Made by a program: the position numbers and the translations under genes. Below the pieces are notes generated by a model. It was not told the origin of the DNA. It did no database searches and worked only from the letters and a program-made list of their open reading frames with translations. This document shows, one piece after another, positions 6,027 to 64,000 of a stretch of DNA of 64,000 bases (positions are counted from its first letter, which is position 1; each line of letters begins with the position of its first letter). Origin of the DNA: Selenomonas sp. AB3002 (lineage in GTDB: Bacteria > Bacillota > Negativicutes > Selenomonadales > Selenomonadaceae); assembly GCF_000702545.1 (NCBI RefSeq), contig NZ_JNIO01000008.1, positions 372,001 to 436,000 on the forward strand. The letters are read 5' to 3'.

Positions 6027-7235
6027 ATGGGAATGTTTGAGCGGAAGCGTTGGAAGCGGCTCTGTGCCGGTGTTTTGGGAGCCCTGCTGATGGCAGGGGG
6101 GGCTGCTTCTGTGGCTGAGTGTGCCGGCAGTGCTGGTGAGGCGGCTGCTGCTGAGCAGTCTGGTGACGAGCGCAAGATTGTCATCAATCTGGCTGCCCGC
6201 AGCCTGGCTCTTTTTGAGAAGGACAAGAAAATCAGGTTGTATCCCATTGGCCCGGGCAAGGAATCCACACCTACTCCTGTGGGTTACTACAGCATCAGGT
6301 CCAAGGATATCAATCCCACCTGGATTGACCCCTCTGACCCTGAGTTCTCCATTCCCTCCGGGGCAGCCAATCCTTTGGGCTATCGCTGGATGGAGTTCTA
6401 TGGCAATTATGGCATCCATGGCACCAACAAGCCGGAGTCTATCGGTCATTACGTTTCCAATGGCTGCATCCGTATGAATGAGAAGGATGTGGAAGCCCTC
6501 TTTGATCTGGTGGAGATTGGCACTCCTGTGGAGATTACCTACAACAGGATTGTGGTGGAGAAGGATGATACTGGTACGATTGTGTACTATATCTATCCCG
6601 ATGGCTATGACCGCCAGTCCCTGACGGTGGAAGAGGTAAATAACTGGCTGGCAGGCTACGGGGTGGAAAACTTCGAGTCTGATGCTTCTATTGAAAAAAA
6701 GATCAAGGCCTCCGATGGGCAGCCTACTTTCATTGCCAAGGCTTATCCGCTGACGGTGAATGGAGAAAAGGTGAAGGGCAAGGCCATTGTGAAGGATGAT
6801 GTGACCTATCTGCCGGCAGCAGACATTGCCCAGGCGCTGAAAATCTCTTTAGGCTGGAAGCCCTCCGAGGAAATCCTGGTGAGTTCTTTGGGTGAGGCAG
6901 TGGGCATTGAGAAGAAGGAGAAGCTCTATTGCAATGCCGATGATGTGGCAGCTCTCTTCAAGGTAGATGGCGGCATCAACAAGCAGGGCATCTACGCCCT
7001 GAAATCCACCTCCAAGGCCATCGTGCCTCTGGTGAAGGACGGCAATCCTGTGGACCCTGAGGCCAGTGTAGAGGAGCAGACCCGTCAGGTTGAGCTGAAT
7101 GCCCAGCAGGAAGCCGCCAGGGAGCTGGAAAAGGCCGAGGCCAGGGAAGCAGCCAAAAAAGAGGCTGCCAGGCAGACTGCTGACAGCAAGTCCGAAAAGG
7201 TAAGCAAGACTGAGAAAGTCGTTGTCCGCAGATAA
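6027..7235 (+). CDS. Exported L,D-transpeptidase (YkuD domain)
   Basis: Forms 3-3 peptidoglycan cross-links or attaches proteins to peptidoglycan in the cell envelope. ATG 6027 is chosen because AAGGAG lies just upstream; the frame is open from GTG 5979. The N-terminus is a signal peptide (RKRWKRLCAGVLGALLMAGG). The YkuD domain covers about residues 50-175, with GIHGT and the catalytic-Cys motif SNGCIRM. The second half (about 190-350) is copper-amine-oxidase-like, with dispersed aromatic and Asp residues. The C-terminus is a charged Glu/Lys/Ala-rich helix, possibly a coiled coil or wall-spanning tail. It precedes polA by 31 bp and may share its transcript. Confidence 0.88.
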   Translation: MGMFERKRWKRLCAGVLGALLMAGGAASVAECAGSAGEAAAAEQSGDERKIVINLAARSLALFEKDKKIRLYPIGPGKESTPTPVGYYSIRSKDINPTWIDPSDPEFSIPSGAANPLGYRWMEFYGNYGIHGTNKPESIGHYVSNGCIRMNEKDVEALFDLVEIGTPVEITYNRIVVEKDDTGTIVYYIYPDGYDRQSLTVEEVNNWLAGYGVENFESDASIEKKIKASDGQPTFIAKAYPLTVNGEKVKGKAIVKDDVTYLPAADIAQALKISLGWKPSEEILVSSLGEAVGIEKKEKLYCNADDVAALFKVDGGINKQGIYALKSTSKAIVPLVKDGNPVDPEASVEEQTRQVELNAQQEAARELEKAEAREAAKKEAARQTADSKSEKVSKTEKVVVRR

Positions 7236-7266
7236 ATTATTTTTTGAGATTTAGGAGGGTACCCCC

Positions 7267-9867
7267 GTGTCAAAGAAGTTCGTCATCCTGGATGGAAGCA
7301 GCCTTATTTTCAGGGCTTTTTATGCCATGCCTCCTCTGACGGATTCCAAGGGGGAGTCTACGGGAGCCATGGTGGGCTTTGACAATATGCTGACCAAGCT
7401 CCTGGTGGAAGTGAAACCGGATCTGCTGGCTATCGCTTTTGACCGCAGCCGTCACACCTTCCGTACGGAACGCTATGCTGACTATAAAGGAACCCGCAAG
7501 GAAACTCCTGCAGAACTGAAGTCCCAGATTCCCCTGCTGAAAGAATATGCCAGAGTCTATGGCATAGCCTTCCTGGAAAAGGACAACTACGAGGCTGATG
7601 ATATTATCGGCACCTTGTCCACCCAGGCGGCGGCAGAGGGCTTTGATACCATGGTGGTCACCGGGGACAGGGATGCCCTGCAGCTGGTGCGGCCTAATCT
7701 CAGGGTCATGCTCACCAAGAAGGGCATTTCCGAGACCAAACTATATGATGAGGCGGCTTTCAAGGAGGAATACGGCTTCGAGCCCATCAAGCTCATTGAC
7801 CTCAAGGGCCTGATGGGGGATACCTCTGACAATATTCCCGGAGTGCCCGGGGTGGGACCCAGGACAGCTTCCAAACTGCTCCTTGAGTACGGCAGCCTGG
7901 AAGAAGTGCTGGAAAATGCAGACAAGATTTCCGGCAAGAAGCTGAAGGAGAATCTCCTGGCCCATAAGGAGCAGGCAATGCTCTCCAAGGAACTGGCCAC
8001 CATTGAGCTGGCGGTGCCTGATATGACCTTCAAAGCAGAGGATTTTGCCATCGAGCCTGTATTCGAAGAGATGGAGTCTTTTTGCAAGGTGCATGAGCTG
8101 AACAAGGTCTGGCATAATTTCCAGCGGCTGAATGTGCGGGAGACAAGTCTTTTCCCTGAACAGGAGGAGTCTTTGCCTGACCTGGGCTATCAGGTGGGGG
8201 AAAGTGCTGATTCTATGGTAGCCTGCCTGAGGGAGGAGGCTCCTTTGGGACTGGCCGGGGTATTTTCCGGCAGGCACCCCTTTGAAAAGCTGGAGGGGGC
8301 GGCAGCAGCCTGTGGCAGTGCCAGGCTCTTTGTGCCTTTTGGCACGCCTGCCTGGGAAATCCTTCTGCAAGCACTGGCAGATGGCCGTCAGGCGGCAGTA
8401 TTCGATGCCAAGCGCTATTATCAGGCAGGCATGGGCAGTGTGCAGTTCTTCGATGTCCAGCTGGTGGACTATCTTCTGCGCCCAGAGCTTTCGGATTACG
8501 AACTGGCAAGGCTCTCCGGCGATTATTTCCCCCATGAGGCAGTGCCTGAGTCCTTTGCCGATGAGAAGGAAGAGGCTGTCTGGCAGGCAGTCCTGCTGGC
8601 CAGGCTGCAGCAGCCCCTTTGGCAGGAGCTGGAAGAGCGGGGGCAGGAAAAGCTTTATGGCGAGATGGAGCTGCCCCTGGTGGCAGTGCTGGCAGACATG
8701 GAGCAGCAGGGCATTTTCGTGAACCGCCAGCGCCTGCTGGAAAAGGCAGAGGAAGTGGGGCAGAGGATTGCAGCCTTGCAGGCTGACATTTACACCCTGG
8801 CAGGGGGAGAGTTCAAGATAAATTCTCCCAAACAGCTGGGGGAAGTGCTCTTTGACCGTCTGGGGCTGCCGCCAGTGAAGAAGACCAAGACGGGCTATTC
8901 CACCAATGCAGAGGTGCTGGAAACCTTGCGCTATCAGCATCCCATCGTGGAGCTGGTGCTTTCCTTCCGCATGTGGAGCAAGCTGAAGTCCACCTATCTG
9001 GACGGCATAGAGGGGCTTATCGACCCGGAGACGGGGCGGGTGCATACCACCTTCAATCAGACGGTGACGGCTACGGGCAGGCTCTCCAGCTCTGACCCCA
9101 ACCTCCAGAACATTCCCGTGCGCCGGGAGGAGGGCAAGACCATCCGCGCCTTCTTTGAGCCGGGGGAAGGATATGATTACATCTTGTCTGCGGATTACTC
9201 TCAGATTGAGCTCAGGATACTGGCTCACATGTCCGGGGACGAGAGTTTCCTGGAGGCCTTCCGTGAGGGGCAGGACATTCACGCCAGGACGGCGGCGGAG
9301 GTCTTTGGCGTGCCTTTGGAAGAGGTTACATCAGATATGCGCCGCAAGGCCAAAGCGGTGAACTTTGGCATTGTCTACGGCATCAGCGATTTCGGCCTTT
9401 CCCGTGACCTGCATATCTCCCGTCAGGAGGCTGCAGGCTATATCGAAAGCTACTTTGACCGCTATCCCGGGGTCAAGGCTTATCTGGACCGCATGGTGCA
9501 GGAGGCCAGGGAAACTGGCAGCGTGAAAACTGTTTTTGGCAGAAGGCGTGAACTGCCTGCTATCAGCAGCAGCAACTTCAATCAGCGTTCCCTGGCGGAG
9601 CGCATGGCCATGAATACTCCTATACAGGGCACTGCGGCGGATATCATCAAGCTGGCCATGATTGCAGCCCACAAGGCGCTGAAGGAAGCCAAAGTCAGGA
9701 GCCGCATCCTTCTGCAGGTACACGATGAGCTGGTGCTGGAAGTGCCAAAAGAGGAAGTGGAGCAGGTGAGCTCCATCCTGCGGGAGGCCATGGAGCAGGT
9801 GGTGAGCCTTTCCGTGCCGTTGAGCATAGACATCAATTATGGCCCCAACTGGGCAGAAGCTAAGTAA
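7267..9867 (+). CDS. polA: DNA polymerase I, proofreading site apparently lost
   Basis: Fills gaps and replaces Okazaki primers during replication and repair. GTG 7267 has TAGGAGGGT upstream. The 5' nuclease domain spans residues about 1-290 (LDGSSLIFRAFYAMPPL, DNYEADDIIGTL, TGDRDALQL). A reduced exonuclease-like domain covers about 310-460, and the polymerase domain about 480-866 has motif A DYSQIELRILAHMSG, motif B with KAVNFGIVYGIS and motif C LQVHDELVLEVP. In place of the usual DTET motif of the 3'-5' exonuclease there is LGLAGVF, so the metal-binding acidic residues are missing, as in Bacillus Pol I. The mutM start follows after 18 bp. Confidence 0.96.
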   Translation: MSKKFVILDGSSLIFRAFYAMPPLTDSKGESTGAMVGFDNMLTKLLVEVKPDLLAIAFDRSRHTFRTERYADYKGTRKETPAELKSQIPLLKEYARVYGIAFLEKDNYEADDIIGTLSTQAAAEGFDTMVVTGDRDALQLVRPNLRVMLTKKGISETKLYDEAAFKEEYGFEPIKLIDLKGLMGDTSDNIPGVPGVGPRTASKLLLEYGSLEEVLENADKISGKKLKENLLAHKEQAMLSKELATIELAVPDMTFKAEDFAIEPVFEEMESFCKVHELNKVWHNFQRLNVRETSLFPEQEESLPDLGYQVGESADSMVACLREEAPLGLAGVFSGRHPFEKLEGAAAACGSARLFVPFGTPAWEILLQALADGRQAAVFDAKRYYQAGMGSVQFFDVQLVDYLLRPELSDYELARLSGDYFPHEAVPESFADEKEEAVWQAVLLARLQQPLWQELEERGQEKLYGEMELPLVAVLADMEQQGIFVNRQRLLEKAEEVGQRIAALQADIYTLAGGEFKINSPKQLGEVLFDRLGLPPVKKTKTGYSTNAEVLETLRYQHPIVELVLSFRMWSKLKSTYLDGIEGLIDPETGRVHTTFNQTVTATGRLSSSDPNLQNIPVRREEGKTIRAFFEPGEGYDYILSADYSQIELRILAHMSGDESFLEAFREGQDIHARTAAEVFGVPLEEVTSDMRRKAKAVNFGIVYGISDFGLSRDLHISRQEAAGYIESYFDRYPGVKAYLDRMVQEARETGSVKTVFGRRRELPAISSSNFNQRSLAERMAMNTPIQGTAADIIKLAMIAAHKALKEAKVRSRILLQVHDELVLEVPKEEVEQVSSILREAMEQVVSLSVPLSIDINYGPNWAEAK

Positions 9868-57868: not shown

Positions 57869-58201
57869 TCACATAGGATACTCAAAGGTAGACCCTACGC
57901 CGAAGTGGATGATGTATTCCTCGGCACCGGCCACGGGAATCCAGAAGCCGTAAGCCTTGCCGAAGGGTCCTTCGTAAGCTTTGTAAGCGGCCTCCTTGTT
58001 GTCGGCAGCCTGATTGCAGAGACAGCCCTTGTGTTTCTCCGGTGCGCCAATGCTGGAGCACTTGATGCCGGTAGTGAGGCCGAGGGAGGCGGCTTTCTTG
58101 TTCACAGCATATATGTCACGGCTCTTCTTGATGAGCATGACGGGGTCGGGGAAATTGTCCCACATCATGTGAAATGACTCAATTACTTTCTGCTCGTCCA
58201 T
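57869..58201 (-). CDS. Small PAS-like protein with three cysteines
   Basis: A 110-residue cytoplasmic protein. The start is the ATG at 58201-58199 with AGGAGAG upstream; the frame from 58234 is possible but has no good ribosome site. Residues about 12-45 look like the start of a PAS domain (NFPDPVMLIKKSRDIYAVNKKA). Cysteines occur in GIKCSSIG and KGCLCNQA, which could bind metal or a cluster, or be redox-active. It is the first gene of the minus-strand unit with rubrerythrin. No output domain is present, so it may sense oxidants and act through a partner. Function unknown. Confidence 0.6.
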   Translation of the reverse strand: MDEQKVIESFHMMWDNFPDPVMLIKKSRDIYAVNKKAASLGLTTGIKCSSIGAPEKHKGCLCNQAADNKEAAYKAYEGPFGKAYGFWIPVAGAEEYIIHFGVGSTFEYPM

Positions 58202-58303
58202 CGTTATCTCTCCTTTAAGAAAACTTTGCTCCATCGTTGGCGTTAAGGGCGAAAGCGTAAATCATGTCAGCTCCGCTTCCTTTTAGTTCATCTTACAGGG
58301 CTT

Positions 58304-58331
58304 ATTATACGCCTAAATTATATTTTGTCAA
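58304..58331 (-). promoter_or_regulatory. Consensus promoter of the PAS-rubrerythrin unit
   Basis: On the minus strand TTGACA (58331-58326), 16-bp spacer and TATAAT (58309-58304), about 100 bp before the PAS-like start. The -35 box overlaps the palindrome at 58329-58356. Confidence 0.75.
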
Positions 58332-58356
58332 ATATAATTTTATAAATTTATATTTG
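58329..58356. promoter_or_regulatory. Palindromic operator between the OhrR-type gene and the PAS-rubrerythrin unit
   Basis: CAAATATAA (58329-58337) and TTATATTTG (58348-58356) are perfect inverted repeats separated by 10 bp, in AT-rich DNA. It overlaps the -35 box of the minus-strand promoter and lies just upstream of a TATAAT (58369-58374) for the + strand regulator gene. Size and AT-richness fit a MarR/OhrR operator controlling both directions. Confidence 0.6.
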
Positions 58357-58416
58357 ATTTAACAGCTATATAATGATAGAATGAAGAAAAGTTCGCAAGC
58401 AGATAGGAGAAAGAAC

Positions 58417-58869
58417 ATGAAAAAGAAAGCATTTGACCCGTTGTTGCTGGAGAATCAGCTATGCTTCCCCATATATGCCAGTGCCAGGAAAATAGTAGCG
58501 GCCTACAATCCTTACCTGAAGAAGATTGGGCTGACTTATGCCCAGTACATCACCATGATGGTGCTGTGGGAGGAAAAGGCCATCACCATGCATGACCTGG
58601 GGAAAAAGCTCTATCTGGATTCCGGCACATTGACCCCGGTGCTGAAGAAGCTGGAGGCTGCTGGTTATCTGAAACGTTATCGCAAGCCTGAGGATGAGCG
58701 CCTGCTGGTAGTGGCTATCACAGAGGATGGTCTTGCCCTGCGTGAAGAAGCTGAGAAGATTCCAGGAGAGCTGGCTGGCTGCCTTGCTCAAAAGGGTGAA
58801 CTGTTTACCATGGAAGAAGTACAGAAGCTCAAAGATCAGCTTTATGCAATTATCCGTGCCTTGGAATAG
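58417..58869 (+). CDS. OhrR-type MarR-family peroxide-sensing regulator
   Basis: A 150-residue dimeric DNA-binding protein. ATG 58417 is preferred over ATG 58381 because AGGAGAAAG lies just before it. The N-terminus LLLENQLCFPIYASARK puts Cys16 where OhrR has its sensing cysteine. YLDSGTLTPVLKKLEAAGYL is the recognition helix region and RKPEDERLL the wing. In other bacteria OhrR represses ohr and responds to organic hydroperoxides. No ohr gene is nearby; the divergent unit encodes rubrerythrin, so I infer that this is its target. Autoregulation is likely through the palindrome at 58329. Confidence 0.82.
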   Translation: MKKKAFDPLLLENQLCFPIYASARKIVAAYNPYLKKIGLTYAQYITMMVLWEEKAITMHDLGKKLYLDSGTLTPVLKKLEAAGYLKRYRKPEDERLLVVAITEDGLALREEAEKIPGELAGCLAQKGELFTMEEVQKLKDQLYAIIRALE

Positions 58870-58873
58870 GCAG

Positions 58874-58892
58874 GATGTTAATTATTAACATC
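58874..58892. promoter_or_regulatory. Perfect 19-bp palindrome before sfsA
   Basis: GATGTTAAT-T-ATTAACATC (58874-58892) begins 5 bp after the OhrR-type stop codon and ends 14 bp before the sfsA start. It could be an operator, or a hairpin in an OhrR-sfsA transcript. No T run follows, so it is not a terminator. Confidence 0.5.
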
Positions 58893-58906
58893 GCGGAGAA
58901 GAAAGA

Positions 58907-59581
58907 ATGAAGTATAACAAGGTCATTGAGGCGGGATTTCTGGCCCGGCCTAACCGCTTTGAAGCCCAGGTGGAGGTGGCGGGGCAGGTAGAAACCGTCC
59001 ATGTTAAGAACACTGGGAGGTGCAAGGAGCTTTTACTCCCGCATGTACCTGTGATACTGGCAGAAGCAGACAACCCTGCCCGGAAAACCAGGTATGATCT
59101 CATAGCAGTGGAGAAAACTGGTCTGGGACTTATAAACATAGACAGCCAGGCACCCAATAAGGTGATGGGAGAGTGGCTGGCTGGAAGAGGCTATGACGTG
59201 GTGAAGCCGGAGTACAAGTATGGCAGTTCCCGCATAGATTTCTACATGGAGCGGGGAGATCAGAAGTACCTGCTGGAGGTCAAGGGCTGCACTCTGGAGC
59301 AAGATGGCATAGGGTATTTCCCTGATGCACCTACGGAACGGGGCATCAAGCATATCCACGAGTTGATTGAGGCAAAAAGAAATGGCTATTGGTGCGGGCT
59401 GGCCTTTGTGATTCAGATGCCGAAGGTTCGAGAGGTGCGTCCCAACATAGTTACGCATCCTGCTTTTGGAGATGCCTGGCAGGAAGCACTGGAGGCTGGA
59501 GTCAGGATTTGGTTCCTGGGATGCGATGTGAAAAAAGATGCCCTGAGCATAGATGATAGCCGGGTATGTGCGGAAGAATGA
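58907..59581 (+). CDS. sfsA: Sugar fermentation stimulation protein SfsA
   Basis: A 224-residue protein of the SfsA family, which has a nuclease-like PD-(D/E)XK core and an OB fold that binds DNA. The core acidic and Lys residues appear in SSRIDFYME and YLLEVKGCTLE, and the N-terminal part has AGFLARPNRFEAQVEV and NTGRCKELL. The cellular function is still unclear despite the old name. ATG 58907 follows GGAGAAGAAAG. kptA starts 1 bp after its stop. Confidence 0.93.
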   Translation: MKYNKVIEAGFLARPNRFEAQVEVAGQVETVHVKNTGRCKELLLPHVPVILAEADNPARKTRYDLIAVEKTGLGLINIDSQAPNKVMGEWLAGRGYDVVKPEYKYGSSRIDFYMERGDQKYLLEVKGCTLEQDGIGYFPDAPTERGIKHIHELIEAKRNGYWCGLAFVIQMPKVREVRPNIVTHPAFGDAWQEALEAGVRIWFLGCDVKKDALSIDDSRVCAEE

Positions 59582-59582
59582 C

Positions 59583-60122
59583 ATGCAGGATAAACAGTTG
59601 AGCAAATTCCTGTCCTTGATACTTCGCCATAAGCCTGAGACGGTGGGGATAACTCTGGATGAGCACGGCTGGGCTAATGTGGAGGAGCTGCTGAGGGGAA
59701 TCCGCCAATCCGGCAGGTGCATTGACTATTCAACGCTGGAGAGAATCGTGGCGGAGAATGACAAGCAACGTTTTGCACTCACCCCCGATGGCAAGAAGAT
59801 TCGGGCCAATCAGGGGCATTCGGTGAACGTGGATGTGGAACTGAAGCCCATGGAACCGCCAGAAGTGCTCTATCATGGGACGGTGGAGAAGAATAAGGCA
59901 TCAATTGAAGTCCAGGGGCTTATAAAGGGTACCAGGCTATATGTGCATCTATCTGCTGATGTGGATACAGCCATGAAAGTGGCCGGGAGGCGAAAGGGCG
60001 AGAAGCTTATCTATGAAGTGGCAGCAGGAGATATGTCCAGGGATGGCTTCAAGTTCTATCTGTCTGTCAATGGCGTCTGGCTGACAGATAAGGTGCCGTG
60101 CAAATATCTCACGCTGCTATAA
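59583..60122 (+). CDS. kptA: RNA 2'-phosphotransferase (KptA/Tpt1 family)
   Basis: Transfers an internal 2'-phosphate of RNA to NAD+, giving ADP-ribose-1'',2''-cyclic phosphate. The 179-residue protein begins at ATG 59583 after GGAAGA; the frame from 59553 lies in sfsA. LSKFLSLILRHKPETVG and DEHGWANVEELL form the N-terminal domain; RANQGHS and LYHGT with IEVQGL form the NAD-binding part. Eukaryotes use it for tRNA splicing; the bacterial substrate is unknown, since bacteria have no such tRNA introns. It is tightly linked to sfsA and closed by a strong terminator. Confidence 0.92.
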   Translation: MQDKQLSKFLSLILRHKPETVGITLDEHGWANVEELLRGIRQSGRCIDYSTLERIVAENDKQRFALTPDGKKIRANQGHSVNVDVELKPMEPPEVLYHGTVEKNKASIEVQGLIKGTRLYVHLSADVDTAMKVAGRRKGEKLIYEVAAGDMSRDGFKFYLSVNGVWLTDKVPCKYLTLL

Positions 60123-60133
60123 GAACATACGTC

Positions 60134-60172
60134 AACCGGGGCTGTTGCAGATTGCAACAGCCCCGGTTTGTT
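60134..60172 (+). terminator. Intrinsic terminator of sfsA-kptA
   Basis: AACCGGGGCTGTTGCA (60134-60149) pairs perfectly with TGCAACAGCCCCGGTT (60153-60168), loop GAT, followed by TGTTT. Confidence 0.92.
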
Positions 60173-60356
60173 TGCGCAAAGCAAACGATTGGACAAGGTT
60201 TCTTCGATGGTGCTTTGCCTGATAGATACGTTGGAGGGGATATCTTTTCTTGGGAAAATAAAAAAATGTAAATTTATCTGTAATACTTTTTCCACCGCTC
60301 CGTATGTATAGGCAGAAAACAAAAACATAGACAACCACCGAAGGGAGTAGATGAAA

Positions 60357-60719
60357 ATGAAGAACGCAATGACCAACAAGAAGCTGAATGATTTTGAACT
60401 GGATTTAGTAGCCGGTGGGACTCTTACAGAGGTCAATCAGCTGGCAGATGCCTTCGCCAAGAAGGGCGGCATCTTCGGAGAAGTTGTGGCCGAGATCCAC
60501 AGCGCATTGAGCGACAAGAGCGGCGTGGCCGGGCCGGTCAACATCCTGCTACGGGAGGCTGTAGGCAAGGGGCTGAGCCAGCTTGGCATCTCCCATGACT
60601 TGAGCGTCGGCGTCCTTGGTACTGGCTTCATGTCAAAGGACAACAAGTATTCTTACAATGGCAAGAGCATTTCCCATGCTGATGTACTCAAGATGATTGA
60701 TGCAGCGAAAGTTGCCTAA
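60357..60719 (+). CDS. Double-glycine-leader peptide, bacteriocin-like
   Basis: A 120-residue protein. ATG 60357 is 9 bp after AGGGAG; ATG 60351 is also possible. The N-terminus NKKLNDFELDLVAGG has the features of a double-glycine leader (acidic FELD helix, hydrophobic L/V at -4, GG at the end) recognised by peptidase-containing ABC exporters. The predicted product after GG is about 99 residues, glycine- and alanine-rich, with no cysteine (AFAKKGGIFGEVVAEIH, GVLGTGFMSKDNKYSYNG). It could be a bacteriocin, a signal or another exported effector. No exporter, immunity or modification gene is visible nearby. The upstream 180 bp hold no clear promoter. Confidence 0.6.
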   Translation: MKNAMTNKKLNDFELDLVAGGTLTEVNQLADAFAKKGGIFGEVVAEIHSALSDKSGVAGPVNILLREAVGKGLSQLGISHDLSVGVLGTGFMSKDNKYSYNGKSISHADVLKMIDAAKVA

Positions 60720-60776
60720 GATATTCAAAACAGTTACAGCATATCAGGCTTTATCTTGATGCCTTATCAAGAAAAG

Positions 60777-60811
60777 GGGCTGACGCACATGCTTGTGTGT
60801 TGGCCCTCTTA
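60777..60811 (+). terminator. Probable terminator of the double-glycine peptide gene
   Basis: GGGCTGACGCACA (60777-60789) pairs with TGTGTGTTGGCCC (60794-60806) through Watson-Crick and G-U pairs, then TCTTAGTT. A smaller hairpin TCTTGAT/ATCAAGA (60754-60772) precedes it. Confidence 0.65.
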
Positions 60812-60843
60812 GTTGGGAAGCCTGAACATGATAAGCAAGGTAA

Positions 60844-61104
60844 CGAGATATCAAGAGATATAACGAGGAAGAAGAAAGCGATGAGAACGCATGGGGTTAT
60901 CAGGATGAGTTAGGTCCCAATGATGTGCTGCGCCCCGGCGAGTCGATCTTCTTGACCTTCTCGCCCAGGGATGATGTGCGTTACTGGGATATCAAGGTGG
61001 TATATGACAATGGCAAAGAAGATGTTTGGGAGGATCTTGACCTTTACCGCATCTTCAATATCACCATCCGTCCCGGTGGTACGGTGAGCATCGAGAGCAC
61101 CTGA
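60844..61104 (+). pseudogene. 5'-truncated fragment of an exported-protein C-terminal domain
   Basis: An open frame of 86 codons with no ATG, GTG or TTG start, preceded by a stop at 60841-60843. It encodes an acidic linker (YNEEEESDENAWG) and then a beta-rich domain: LGPNDVLRPGESIFLTF, YWDIKVVYDNGKEDVWEDL and ITIRPGGTVSIEST. This WG-x-LG-x-VLxPGES pattern occurs, from memory, at the C-termini of many secreted proteins of uncertain function. The 5' part is missing, so this is probably the tail of a deleted gene. Confidence 0.5.
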
Positions 61105-61114
61105 GATAAAAAAA

Positions 61115-61208
61115 GGCTGTCGCACTAAGCTATTTCACTACGATACCTAGCTTGAGATAATTCTCTTGGCTGATAGATATCGTGGCAAAATGCTTAAATG
61201 CGACAGCC
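61115..61208. repeat. 94-bp imperfect palindrome, bidirectional terminator or small MITE
   Basis: GGCTGTCGCA (61115-61124) pairs with TGCGACAGCC (61199-61208), and inside these TAAGC (61126-61130) pairs with GCTTA (61192-61196). An A run precedes it (61107-61114) and CTTTTT follows. The 61-bp interior holds further short pairings and no gene. The ends are typical of insertion-sequence or MITE tips, while the flanking A/T runs fit a terminator for both strands. Confidence 0.5.
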
Positions 61209-61223
61209 CTTTTTGTGTATGGG

Positions 61224-61466
61224 TCAGAAAACGGAAAGTATGAGGTACAAGAGCAGGGACAGGGCGAAGAAGGCAGCTGTGACATGCTTCCAGAACTTGT
61301 AGTCCTTATCAATGGCTTCCCGCTCCACAGGAGTGGGGTCAGGGGGATTGGCTTGTACCTCCCCTGTGGAACATGTACAATGTGGCGGCCAAAAACGAAA
61401 AATCTGTAATGAGAAACGGTTCTGATGGCCGTCAACTAATGTCCTGAAGGTGTTGTTGTAATGGTT
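61224..61466 (-). pseudogene. Minus-strand frame for a small membrane protein without a start codon
   Basis: A minus-strand frame, open from 61466 to its stop at 61226-61224, ends in HCTCSTGEVQ, PDPTPVEREAIDKDYKFWK and a hydrophobic helix TAAFFALSLLLYLILSVF. The juxtaposed charged stretch and transmembrane helix look like real protein, and a terminator-like hairpin lies directly after it. No ATG, TTG or GTG lies upstream of the charged stretch; the only common start is GTG 61328-61326, 30 bp from the purine-rich GGGGAGG. It is either a decayed gene or one with an unusual start. Confidence 0.35.
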
Positions 61467-61478
61467 TTATGTAATGGT

Positions 61479-61507
61479 TTGGCTGAAATGGGGTTGGGGT
61501 GTAAAAT
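61479..61507 (+). promoter_or_regulatory. Putative promoter of the primase-helicase gene
   Basis: TTGGCT (61479-61484), 17-bp spacer and TAAAAT (61502-61507), leaving a leader of about 140 bases before GTG 61653. The leader holds a ribosome-site-like GGGGAGG (61530-61536) with an 18-codon frame behind it and an AAGCT/AGCTT hairpin near 61615-61635. Confidence 0.45.
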
Positions 61508-61652
61508 AGAGGATAGAAAGCTATTTTGAGGGGAGGCAGGTAGTTGCAGTGGAACAGGTAGACATTAGTACAGCCTTGAAGAGGGCTCATTTTAGAAGAC
61601 ATTGAAGAGCAAGAAGCTAGCTGAAACAGCTTTGTAGAGAACGGGGGATAAG

Positions 61653-64000
61653 GTGGCTCTGAAGGAAATAGAATCATTGCGGCAGGAGAATGAGCGGTTG
61701 GTGGCCGAGGTTGAACGGCTGAGAAGCCTATTGAAAAGTCATGGTATCCCATATGAGCCCAAGCCTGAGCCTCCCAGACATGTTGATTCGGCGGCAGAGG
61801 CGAAACGCCGTGTAAATCTTTTTATGAAGCTTTTTTGCGCCAGAAGAGATTTTTATGCAGAGCGTTGGGAGAGCAAAGGCGGCAGAGCTGGCTATAGTCC
61901 CGTTTGCAGCAATCGCTGGACACCCATGTGCCCAAAGAAGACACGGGGAATCAAATGCCATGAATGCGATAAACAAGCCTGGGTTCCTTTTACTGAGAGT
62001 GTGGCATACAAGCATCTTGTAGGGCAGGATGAGCGTGGAAGGCCCTATGTAATTGGAACGTATGCTCTTTTAGAGGATTCCACCTGCAAATTTCTGGTGT
62101 TCGATTTTGATGACCATGATGGGTCTCATGTGGCATGGCAGGAGGAGGCACGTCTCTTAAGAGAGATATGCCAGAGCTATGGTATTGACACAGCCCTGGA
62201 ACGGTCACGTTCTGGCAAGGGTGCTCATGTCTGGATTTTCTTTGACGAGCCGCTGGAGGCAAAGTTGGCACGGAGATTCGGTGCAGCACTTCTGGCTAAG
62301 GGAGCAGAAAAAGTACATCAGAGGGATTTCAACACTTTTGACCGCATGATGCCTAATCAGGACGAGATGCCCGCCGGTGGTATGGGGAATCTCATTGCAT
62401 TGCCCTTGCAAGGTCTCCCTCGCAAACAGAATAATTCTGTATTTGTCGATGAGAACTGGGAGGTTATACCAGACCAATGGGGATATCTGGAGCAAAAGAA
62501 ATTGCTGTCCAGAGAATTTGTGGGAAACAAGCTCACAGAATGGGGACCGCAGGATTTGCCAGCCCTCCTGGAGGAAAATGAGACTGAGCTGGATTTAAAG
62601 CCTTGGGAGCCTAAGTCTAAAGTGATATTGGAGCGGTCTGACGTAAGGGGCCCCCTGAGGCTTACACTGGCAGACTGCATCTATATTCCCCAGCAGTCTG
62701 TTAAGCCGCGTACTATGAACCTTATTCGCAAGATGGCCACCTTCAGTAACCCACAGTTTTATAAGATGCGGGCTATGCGCTATTCCACCAAGCAGATTCC
62801 TCGCCGAATACAATGCTTCCGTGATACAGAAGATTTTGTCGCCTTGCCTCGCGGGTGCCTGAAAAAGCTGAAGGAGCAGCTGGAGACGGCGGGCATCGCT
62901 TATGAAATAGAGGATTGCCGTACGACAGGCAGGGCTATAGATGTCAATTTTCAAGGGATGTTGCAACCAGAGCAGGAAAAGGCGATAGAAGCTATGTTGG
63001 CCCATGATATTGGTATCCTGGGGGCAGCAACAGGCTTCGGAAAGACGGTGCTGGGGACTTATCTTATTGCCAGTCGCAAGGTCAATACACTGGTATTGGT
63101 GCACAATCGCGAGATTATGCGGGGCTGGCAGGAGGATATAGCAAAGTTCCTGCAAATCAATGAGGAGGTGCCGATAGAGGAAGGGAAACGCAGAAGAAAG
63201 CCAAAGAGCATAGTTGGGACGCTTTATGCCGGGCATGATTCATTGCATGGTATCGTAGACGTGGCTATGATCTCGTCTCTGGGAAGAGATGACGCTGTGG
63301 ATGAGCGTGTGGCAGATTATGGCATGGTTATCATGGATGAGTGCCATCACGCCGGAGCCTACACTTTTGAAAATGTGTTGTGGAAGGTGAAGGCTAAATA
63401 TGTCTATGGACTGACAGCTACTCCTGTGAGGGAGGATGGCCATGAAAAGATTGTCTTTATGCAGTTTGGAGACGTGCGTTATCGCCTGTCCGAGAAAGAC
63501 AGGGCTGCCATGCAGGACTTCAGGCATGAGATTTGCCCGCGATTCACGAGCTTTGCTCCAGTAACCAGAGAGAAACCATCGATAAACGAATTGTATAAGC
63601 TGCTAATTCAGGATAAACTGCGCAATCAGATGCTGGTGGATGATATCGCAGCTGCTGTTGACGATGGACGTACACCGCTGGTGCTTACAAAATTTAAGGA
63701 GCATGCGAAACTCATTCATGAAGCACTGCAGAAAAAGGGCTTTAATTCAGTACTGGCTCTTGGAGGAGGTTCAACAAGCGAGCGCAAGGCTCGGCGTGAT
63801 GTTTTGCAGGCTGCCACTGACGATGAACGGCTAGTGATTGTCGCCACAGGGAAGTATATAGGCGAAGGTTTCAACTTCCCCAGGCTGGATACGCTCTTTT
63901 TGGCAGTGCCGGTGTCCTGGAAGGGCAATATTGCCCAATATGCCGGAAGGTTGCACAGGGACTTTGAGGGCAAGGAAAATGTAATCATATATGATTACGT
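61653..64000 (+). CDS. Primase-helicase of the TOTE conflict-system type, 3' end cut by the window
   Basis: The frame runs from GTG 61653 (after GGGGGATAAG; a stop at 61635 excludes a longer frame) past base 64000, giving 782 codons so far. Residues 2-32 are a leucine-rich coiled coil (EIESLRQENERLVAEVERL). Cysteines 85, 93, 102 and 105 suggest a zinc site. Residues about 150-200 form an archaeo-eukaryotic primase core (FDFDDHDG, SRSGKGAHVWIFF). From about 440 there is a superfamily 2 helicase: Walker A GAATGFGKT (457-465), DECH (562-565), LTATP (587) and QYAGRLHR (about 762). This order matches proteins named TOTE conflict system primases. A defence role is inferred. Neighbouring partners lie beyond the edge. 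Confidence 0.8.
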   Translation, partial: MALKEIESLRQENERLVAEVERLRSLLKSHGIPYEPKPEPPRHVDSAAEAKRRVNLFMKLFCARRDFYAERWESKGGRAGYSPVCSNRWTPMCPKKTRGIKCHECDKQAWVPFTESVAYKHLVGQDERGRPYVIGTYALLEDSTCKFLVFDFDDHDGSHVAWQEEARLLREICQSYGIDTALERSRSGKGAHVWIFFDEPLEAKLARRFGAALLAKGAEKVHQRDFNTFDRMMPNQDEMPAGGMGNLIALPLQGLPRKQNNSVFVDENWEVIPDQWGYLEQKKLLSREFVGNKLTEWGPQDLPALLEENETELDLKPWEPKSKVILERSDVRGPLRLTLADCIYIPQQSVKPRTMNLIRKMATFSNPQFYKMRAMRYSTKQIPRRIQCFRDTEDFVALPRGCLKKLKEQLETAGIAYEIEDCRTTGRAIDVNFQGMLQPEQEKAIEAMLAHDIGILGAATGFGKTVLGTYLIASRKVNTLVLVHNREIMRGWQEDIAKFLQINEEVPIEEGKRRRKPKSIVGTLYAGHDSLHGIVDVAMISSLGRDDAVDERVADYGMVIMDECHHAGAYTFENVLWKVKAKYVYGLTATPVREDGHEKIVFMQFGDVRYRLSEKDRAAMQDFRHEICPRFTSFAPVTREKPSINELYKLLIQDKLRNQMLVDDIAAAVDDGRTPLVLTKFKEHAKLIHEALQKKGFNSVLALGGGSTSERKARRDVLQAATDDERLVIVATGKYIGEGFNFPRLDTLFLAVPVSWKGNIAQYAGRLHRDFEGKENVIIYDY

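What the first reader, a model, noticed from the sequence alone, without database searches (positions are those of the whole stretch)
60357..60719. Cysteine-free double-glycine-leader protein without a local exporter
KLNDFELDLVAGG is a textbook double-glycine leader, but the predicted mature protein of about 99 residues is larger than usual and resembles no bacteriocin known to me. It is surrounded by gene fragments, so the exporter may be lost or elsewhere.
Basis: partly seen in the sequence, partly recalled or inferred. Interest (0 to 1): 0.6.

Follow-up and report, generated by a model that had tools for sequence, protein, structure and literature searches.

The report
Exported double-glycine protein family of Selenomonas
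The gene makes a small, probably folded protein that carries an export tag; it belongs to a large family of such proteins in Selenomonas-type gut bacteria whose genes share promoter elements tied to a peptide exporter and its sigma factor, and what the proteins do outside the cell is still unknown.

Summary
Window 60351 (or 60357)-60719 encodes a precursor whose leader fits the published PCAT consensus, followed by a Cys-free 99-aa part. No exporter lies in the window, but the genome has nine C39-peptidase matches; the C2 exporter passes the NHLP-type models. The genome holds four near-identical copies (dN/dS 0.03-0.12) and three distant paralogues. A family profile matches 86 of 189 Selenomonadaceae genomes, up to 17 places per genome; all matches in class and phylum samples fall in that family. 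AlphaFold gives a confident alpha/beta domain without a PDB match. Two promoter types mark such genes: of 25 class A sites 21 precede leader ORFs and 3 NHLP exporter operons; of 19 class B sites (the window's type) 16 precede leader ORFs. Class B occurs only in sampled genomes with one ECF sigma (SigB), which in five relatives sits directly behind its own HlyD-HlyD2-PCAT-ABC2 genes. In the window's genome SigB and four cargo genes remain but those exporter genes are gone, most simply by deletion, so export would need another NHLP exporter. Export is inferred, not shown. A folded domain, purifying selection and no separate gene travelling with the copies argue against an ordinary bacteriocin; the extracellular role is unknown.

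The parts
60255..60725 (+). Unit shared at about 90% DNA identity with the other three full copies in the same genome (C8:1131395, C7:52952, C7:59136); the blastn search found no further DNA of 58001-64000 shared with them
   Evidence: copies located
60280..60288 (+). GTAATACTT, upstream (-35-like) half of the class B element
   Evidence: promoter role inferred
60301..60311 (+). CGTATGTATAG, downstream (-10-like) half of the class B element
   Evidence: promoter role inferred
60342..60347 (+). AGGGAG, probable ribosome-binding site
   Evidence: read from the sequence
60351..60719 (+). Precursor gene (start 60351 or 60357, stop TAA 60717-60719)
60357..60419 (+). Double-glycine leader: L(-12), E(-8), L(-7), V(-4), G(-2), G(-1)
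   Evidence: sequence; consensus from PMC6959990
60420..60716 (+). Predicted mature protein, 99 aa, topology H-H-H-E-E-E-H
   Evidence: AlphaFold pLDDT 84.7, pTM 0.77; cleavage site inferred
60774..60810 (+). Stem-loop behind the gene, probable terminator
   Evidence: -27.5 kcal/mol for the 66-nt stretch folded, z -4.3

Best explanation
The gene encodes a small exported protein of a family found so far only in Selenomonadaceae. Shown by comparison: the leader fits the PCAT consensus; the gene has a class B promoter element that mostly precedes double-glycine genes; in 14 sampled genomes class B occurs only where the ECF sigma SigB occurs; in five relatives SigB lies directly behind HlyD-HlyD2-PCAT-ABC2 genes; here those four genes are missing and SigB remains. 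Inferred: SigB transcribes the gene; one of the remaining NHLP-type exporters (C2:952989 or C7:7372) binds the leader, cuts after GG and passes the 99-aa domain through HlyD and a TolC-like protein to the outside. There I think it more likely acts as a folded surface, matrix or cell-contact protein (EbfG proteins of Synechococcus act in biofilm development) than as a membrane-active bacteriocin. My odds: export by a C39 exporter 0.85; a non-bacteriocin role 0.6.
For: Leader fit and conservation. Nine PF03412 matches in the genome; the C2 exporter passes TIGR03796 and TIGR03797 cut-offs, with an ECF sigma over cut-off and a TolC-like protein below cut-off. 82 of 86 family-positive genomes have a C39 match against 53 of 103 family-negative ones (relatedness not corrected). 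Family members lie beside, or one gene away from, exporter operons of this type in L043 (a 34%-identical relative of the window protein), L102, L103, L105, L090 and L119. Class A: 25 sites in 7 of 12 chosen genomes, control 0; 21 before leader ORFs, 3 before HlyD of exporter operons, 1 before neither. Class B: 19 sites in 6 of 14 chosen genomes, control 0; 16 before leader ORFs, 1 before a remnant, 2 before other genes. Class B in 6 of 8 genomes with SigB (72% identity or more) and 0 of 6 without, p 0.0097. SigB behind HlyD-HlyD2-PCAT-ABC2 in G002, G003, G004, G020, G046. G003 has 7.65 kb where this genome has 423 nt. Exporter tree: SigB clade 100/100 without own-genome rows; the five own C39 matches not in the tree are also not SigB-type. 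dN/dS 0.03-0.12. Folded model.
Against: Export, cleavage and sigma dependence are not shown. Both patterns were drawn by eye from sites already seen (5 of 25 for A, 9 of 19 for B); unseen sites give, for A, 16 leader ORFs, 3 operons and 1 neither of 20, and for B 7 leader ORFs, 1 remnant and 2 others of 10. The genomes were chosen by me, mostly for having family members, and the 72% limit for SigB was set after seeing the gap between 49 and 72%. SigA against class A is not significant (6 of 9 against 1 of 3, p 0.52); G002 has one class A site without a close SigA; G004 and G020 have SigB but no strict class B site. Four family-positive genomes lack a C39 match (G001, G030, G138, G208); G001 carries three near-identical copies of this gene, but is a MAG in 380 contigs with 8% contamination. 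No match indicates a function for the mature domain.
Confidence: 0.65

Rival explanations
1. A class II microcin-like bacteriocin: exported the same way, but acting on related cells, with immunity intrinsic, encoded elsewhere, or not recognisable.
For: Leader type, PCAT, HlyD and TolC match the class II microcin export set (PMC10233263, passages); arrays of many diverse paralogues would suit antagonism; the exporter models carry bacteriocin names. An antisense ORF with a hydrophobic stretch overlaps promoter and leader in three of the four own copies (66-126 aa) and cannot be excluded as an immunity gene by sequence alone.
Against: Class II microcins typically have an adjacent immunity gene; the four own copies share only the unit 60255-60725, and the antisense ORF is absent at 60 aa or more in the fourth copy. 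In array L090, five leader genes from 6759 to 8433 are at most 33 nt apart, leaving no room for immunity genes between them. Mature part 10.2 kDa, neutral, confidently folded. dN/dS 0.03-0.12.
Confidence: 0.25
2. Decaying orphan: after loss of its exporter genes the protein is made but no longer exported, and the copies are relics.
For: The SigB-type exporter genes are missing; one copy is a fragment (C7:58102) and another class B site leads to a remnant (C8:460491, by eye).
Against: Four intact copies with dN/dS 0.03-0.12 and intact promoter element and RBS; other NHLP-type exporters remain.
Confidence: 0.08
3. A RiPP precursor whose core is chemically modified before export by the NHLP system.
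For: NHLP exporters were first linked to modified NHLP and Nif11 precursors (PMC2887384, passages); two exporters of this genome sit with radical SAM-like proteins (by eye).
Against: No NHLP or Nif11 leader model matches this protein; no Cys; no RiPP modification enzyme recognised by eye beside the copies or in L043, although an NRPS-like ORF of 985 aa follows the C7:52952 copy; the mature part is predicted to be a folded domain.
Confidence: 0.05
4. The leader is a chance resemblance in an ordinary cytoplasmic protein.
For: None found.
Against: Conservation, copies, promoter and exporter linkage.
Confidence: 0.01

Closest known systems
NHLP/Nif11 precursor and export system (TIGR03794, TIGR03796, TIGR03797; PMC2887384, passages read)
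   Same: Same exporter families: the C2 operon and that of L043 pass the cut-offs of TIGR03796 and TIGR03797; GG cleavage motif; large paralogous precursor families in some genomes.
   Different: Here the leader is short (about 21-23 aa) with no NHLP or Nif11 leader match, the cargo is a predicted folded domain of about 90-100 aa without recognised modification enzymes, and an ECF sigma gene lies in the operon. One relative, L023, carries a Nif11-like leader below cut-off.
EbfG1-4 and PteB of Synechococcus elongatus (PMC4997328, passages read)
   Same: Four small GG-motif proteins secreted with the help of a C39 peptidase transporter, implicated in biofilm development rather than killing.
   Different: No sequence comparison with EbfG was run; here the gene is remote from any exporter and has a promoter element tied to a sigma gene; no biofilm role is shown.
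Class II microcins (PMC10233263, passages read)
   Same: GG leader, PCAT, membrane fusion protein and TolC in a two-membrane bacterium.
   Different: No separate gene travels with the copies, the mature part is larger and predicted to be folded, there are many paralogues, and the exporter has a second ABC protein.

Membership tests
Substrates of C39-peptidase (PCAT) exporters | Leader with L(-12)..E(-8)L(-7)....G(-2)G(-1) | tested here: met
   Sequence against the consensus in PMC6959990. The same positions recur in 61 collected leaders, but these were chosen by a pattern that partly forces -12, -8, -7, -4 and GG
Substrates of C39-peptidase (PCAT) exporters | A C39 exporter in the genome | tested here: met
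   Nine PF03412 matches over cut-off
Substrates of C39-peptidase (PCAT) exporters | Cleavage after GG and secretion | not testable with these tools
   Needs mass spectrometry
Class II microcin / class II bacteriocin | Cognate immunity gene next to the precursor gene | tested here: inconclusive
   No separate gene is shared by the four own copies; an antisense ORF with a hydrophobic stretch overlaps three of the four, and immunity genes have no common sequence feature
Class II microcin / class II bacteriocin | Mature size about 5-10 kDa | tested here: inconclusive
   10.2 kDa, just above the range (range)
Class II microcin / class II bacteriocin | Kills or inhibits related bacteria | not testable with these tools
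   Bench test
NHLP or Nif11 precursor (TIGR03793, TIGR03798) | NHase-like or Nif11-like leader | tested here: not met
   NCBIfam scan up to E 1: only NF038167 at 13.6 bits, cut-off 32
Cargo of NHLP-type exporters (TIGR03796/03797) | Gene beside or co-regulated with such an exporter | tested here: inconclusive
   Not for the window gene itself; seen for relatives (L043, L119, L102, L103, L105, L090) and for the class A element
EbfG-type biofilm proteins | Needed for biofilm development | not testable with these tools
   Bench test; no sequence comparison with EbfG was run

The most novel reading that the evidence does not exclude
Selenomonadaceae carry at least two parallel, sigma-factor-wired export systems (ECF sigma, NHLP-type double ABC exporter, and dispersed double-glycine genes recognisable by promoter rather than by gene neighbourhood) that deliver a diversifying folded domain to the cell exterior; in the window's lineage one system has lost its exporter and its four cargo genes have been taken over by the other system's exporter.
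Probability: 0.45. Interest if true: 0.75.

Novelty: new variant of a known kind. Interest (0 to 1): 0.6.

Why it matters
In the passages read of PMC2887384 the NHLP exporters are tied to modified-peptide precursors. A family of folded, short-leader proteins with promoter elements of their own would show that such exporters also serve an unmodified, regulated set of exported proteins in a group of two-membrane Firmicutes of rumen and gut. The promoter elements give a way to find cargo genes that lie far from any exporter, and the lineage that kept sigma and cargo but lost the exporter genes lets exporter exchange be tested directly.

Tried and rejected
Pfam, NCBIfam, PHROGs and PADLOC gave no family for the window protein (Pfam best PF14406 at 14.4 bits, cut-off 25; NCBIfam best NF038167 at 13.6, cut-off 32; PHROGs and PADLOC none). 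PDB chains by sequence with the mature-domain profile: three rows at E 0.28-0.29, chance. PDB by fold: 17 rows, none at E 0.001 or better; VIA-align best Z 4.4 over 72 residues at 6.5 A. These weak results do not show that the fold is new.

Distribution: with the single protein, 20 of 100 relatives matched at E 0.1, among them four genomes outside the family with E 0.018-0.052, in larger unrelated-looking frames (rejected as chance). With the profile, 40 of 300 genomes of the class (E 0.001) and 5 of 398 of the phylum (E 0.0001) match, all in family f1. First-look candidates per genome were capped, so counts per genome can be low.

Dropped: concerted evolution of the copies (the G003 copy and the own C7 copy near metH lie on opposite sides of it). 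Mobility of the unit: only looked at in an alignment that contained two sequences in the wrong orientation, and no search for terminal repeats was completed (one search failed). A link to flagella: flagellin is next to the G002 orthologue (PF00669) and within a few kb of a member in L096 and L106, but this was not counted against a control; the FliB label for a neighbour in G046 and G003 was recalled and not confirmed.

Full report
What is there. The ORF at 60351-60719 is open: probable RBS at 60342-60347, start at 60351 or 60357, stop at 60717-60719, and a strong stem-loop at 60774-60810. Its leader ...KLNDFELDLVAGG has L at -12, E at -8, L at -7 and GG, the consensus given for PCAT substrates in PMC6959990 (passages read). 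It is the only one of 269 ORFs of at least 60 aa in the window with such a leader in its first 45 residues. The mature part is 99 aa, 10.2 kDa, pI 6.75, without Cys or Trp.

Not alone in its genome. The window is C8:372001-436000 of a 3.67-Mb genome in 8 contigs. A protein search gave seven matches: four full copies at 96-100% identity (C8:432357, C8:1131395, C7:52952, C7:59136), one C-terminal fragment (C7:58102) and two weak ones. The profile brings this to three distant paralogues, all on C7. The copies share the unit 60255-60725, about 90% identical in DNA, and no other stretch of 58001-64000. Of six own-genome pairs, dN/dS is 0.027 to 0.123 with dS 0.12-0.41: the protein is held nearly constant while its DNA drifts.

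A family. With an eight-sequence profile, 86 of 189 genomes of the same family match at E 0.01, with up to 17 matches in one genome (the profile includes the leader, so some weak matches may rest largely on it). In drawn samples, 40 of 300 genomes of the class and 5 of 398 of the phylum match, all in the window's own family. Named relatives are Selenomonas sp. (red deer MAG), S. ruminantium MAGs, Selenomonas sp. AE3005 and Selenomonadaceae or Selenomonadales MAGs, several from ruminants, so the host is most likely a Selenomonas. Members occur in tandem arrays (L089, L090, L091, and C7:246-249 kb of the own genome). In an alignment of 12 mature parts (three of them near-identical to each other) only N, Y and G near the C-terminus are invariant. 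Of 61 precursors collected by leader pattern from the window and 27 loci, 38 have Cys in the mature part; median mature length 92.

Fold. AlphaFold on the mature part with 12 sequences gives pLDDT 84.7, pTM 0.77, topology H-H-H-E-E-E-H. A distant member (L119, 32% identical), predicted from 10 of the same sequences, gives pLDDT 79.6, pTM 0.72 and H-H-E-E-E-H, with residues 22-31 under pLDDT 50. The two predictions share their sequences and are not independent. No PDB chain matches convincingly by fold or sequence.

Exporter. Nine matches to the C39 peptidase family occur in the genome, none in the window. The C2 operon is an NHLP-type system: 970 bits to TIGR03796 (cut-off 853), 722 to TIGR03797 (cut-off 709), an ECF sigma (112 bits, cut-off 43) and a TolC-like protein (135 bits, below its cut-off of 225). 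The L043 exporter also passes both models; other operons were called by similarity only. Four full-length own-genome exporters were compared, the other three being 64-84% identical to that on C2. Of the remaining five own matches, three lie on C6, a 20.9-kb contig with rearranged pieces closest to the C2 or C7 exporters, and two (C2:651029, C2:654535) are only 27-31% identical to the four NHLP-type exporters they were held against. Of 86 family-positive genomes 82 have a C39 match, against 53 of 103 family-negative ones (Fisher p 3.8e-12, relatedness not corrected). Members sit beside exporter operons of this type, or one gene away, in L043 (a 34%-identical relative of the window protein), L102, L103, L105, L090 and L119.

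Promoters. Upstream stretches of 20 genes, most of them double-glycine genes, showed two related elements. Class A (AAYACTTT, N11-13, KATRTAWAG, NN, CAGA) was searched in 12 genomes that I chose: 25 sites in 7 genomes, none with the reversed control. 21 are followed within 125 nt by an ORF with this leader type (18 with GG, 3 with GS or GA at that place), 3 by HlyD of an exporter operon (own C2:955958, own C6:5561, G003:C30) and 1 (G213:C17) by neither. Two of the 21 precede the same gene. Class B (GTAATRCT, N12-14, CGTATRTA), the window's type, was searched in 14 chosen genomes: 19 sites in 6 genomes, control none; 16 precede leader ORFs, 1 a remnant (own C8:460491), 2 other genes (a LysM-like and a cyclase-like protein in G046; names by eye). 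Five of the 25 and nine of the 19 sites had been seen before the patterns were made; the unseen ones give 16 leader ORFs, 3 operons and 1 neither of 20, and 7 leader ORFs, 1 remnant and 2 others of 10. Neither element has been tested as a promoter.

Two sigmas. SigB (own C7:13115-13684) has orthologues of 72% identity or more in 8 of 14 genomes (G210 partial, 151 residues); the next best is 49%, and the limit was set after seeing this gap. Class B sites occur in 6 of these 8 and in 0 of the other 6 (p 0.0097). SigA (own C2:946231-946803) has orthologues of 63% or more in 10 of 14; of the 12 genomes searched for class A, sites occur in 6 of 9 with it and 1 of 3 without (p 0.52), so that assignment rests on gene neighbourhood only. 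SigB lies directly behind HlyD-HlyD2-PCAT-ABC2 genes in G002, G003, G004, G020 and G046; in G046 four leader genes and a class B site (found with one mismatch allowed) lie inside the operon, and in G020 two leader genes follow SigB. In G004 and G046 one stop was counted inside the aligned sigma stretch; I did not follow this.

The lost exporter. In the window's genome and in G001, SigB stands alone near ParA-, ParB- and M23-like genes (names by eye). DNA alignment with G003 is collinear on both sides of a gap, with 7.65 kb in G003 (the four exporter genes) against 423 nt here. Deletion is the simplest reading; insertion in the others is not excluded. In a tree of 13 exporters the five SigB-linked ones form a clade (100/100) with none of the four own-genome exporters; own C2 and C7 fall in the SigA-linked clade (100/99). 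The other five own C39 matches are not of the SigB type either. So sigma and four cargo genes stay, the cargo is under purifying selection, and the exporter that belongs to this promoter class is gone. The simplest reading is export in trans by a SigA-clade exporter; G032 supports it, as there a relative of the window protein sits beside a SigA-type operon with two class A sites. Against it: G001 has three copies but no C39 match at all, though it is a fragmented MAG with 8% contamination.

Function. The mature part is predicted to be folded, is neutral and conserved between copies, and no separate gene travels with it. Class II microcins typically carry an immunity gene next to the toxin gene (PMC10233263, passages). 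An antisense ORF with a hydrophobic stretch overlaps promoter and leader in three of the four own copies (126, 82 and 66 aa) but is absent at 60 aa or more in the fourth; I take it for a by-product of the conserved leader, without proof. In array L090 five leader genes are at most 33 nt apart, while other arrays have gaps up to about 220 nt or more. GG proteins with a role in biofilm development are known: EbfG1-4 with the C39 transporter PteB in Synechococcus (PMC4997328, passages). I therefore prefer a surface, matrix or contact role (about 0.6) to a bacteriocin (about 0.25); no computation here decides it.

Literature. Eight searches of the open-access library aimed at this subject listed no paper that, by title or start of abstract, describes this family. 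Searches listed only part of their hits (20 of 26, 20 of 50, 10 of 241, 10 of 14). The one paper holding both 'double-glycine' and 'Selenomonas' (PMC3482391, passages) has no 'double-glycine' in its held main text. Most listed papers were not opened, and subscription journals are mostly missing from the library.

Noticed in passing
61653-63998 (+), runs off the window: TOTE-type primase-helicase: PF22548 at 284 bits plus helicase domains, a candidate conflict-system gene.
   Followed up: no
59553-60122 (+): KptA/Tpt1 RNA 2'-phosphotransferase (PF01885, 161 bits), just after an SfsA-like ORF (name by eye); neither was seen between the MarR-like ORF and the gene in the G001 locus L109.
   Followed up: partly
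61114-61213: Very long hairpin (z -7.3 for 61100-61230); a related stretch occurs in G001 in both orientations, perhaps a small palindromic element.
   Followed up: partly
   Followed up: partly
L052 and L053 (own C8:212-232 kb and 518-538 kb): Two further exporters of this type with radical SAM-like proteins and other GG precursors, long-leader in L052 (by eye).
   Followed up: no
L055 (own contig C6, 20.9 kb): Rearranged, partly broken pieces of exporter genes close to those on C2 and C7; assembly artefact or real rearrangement.
   Followed up: partly
L163 and L146 (G046): Class B elements before a cyclase-like gene and a LysM-like gene, possible non-cargo members of the regulon.
   Followed up: no
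L112, L096, L106: Flagellin genes next to or within a few kb of family members; PF00669 confirmed for L112.
   Followed up: partly
L023 (G025): Related mature part (profile E 9.1e-7) behind a longer Nif11-like leader (TIGR03798 at 21.2 bits, cut-off 32.3), a possible leader exchange.
   Followed up: partly
L033:13698-16655 (own C7): NRPS-like adenylation ORF of 985 aa and a MATE-like transporter ORF (names by eye) follow the C7:52952 copy.
   Followed up: no
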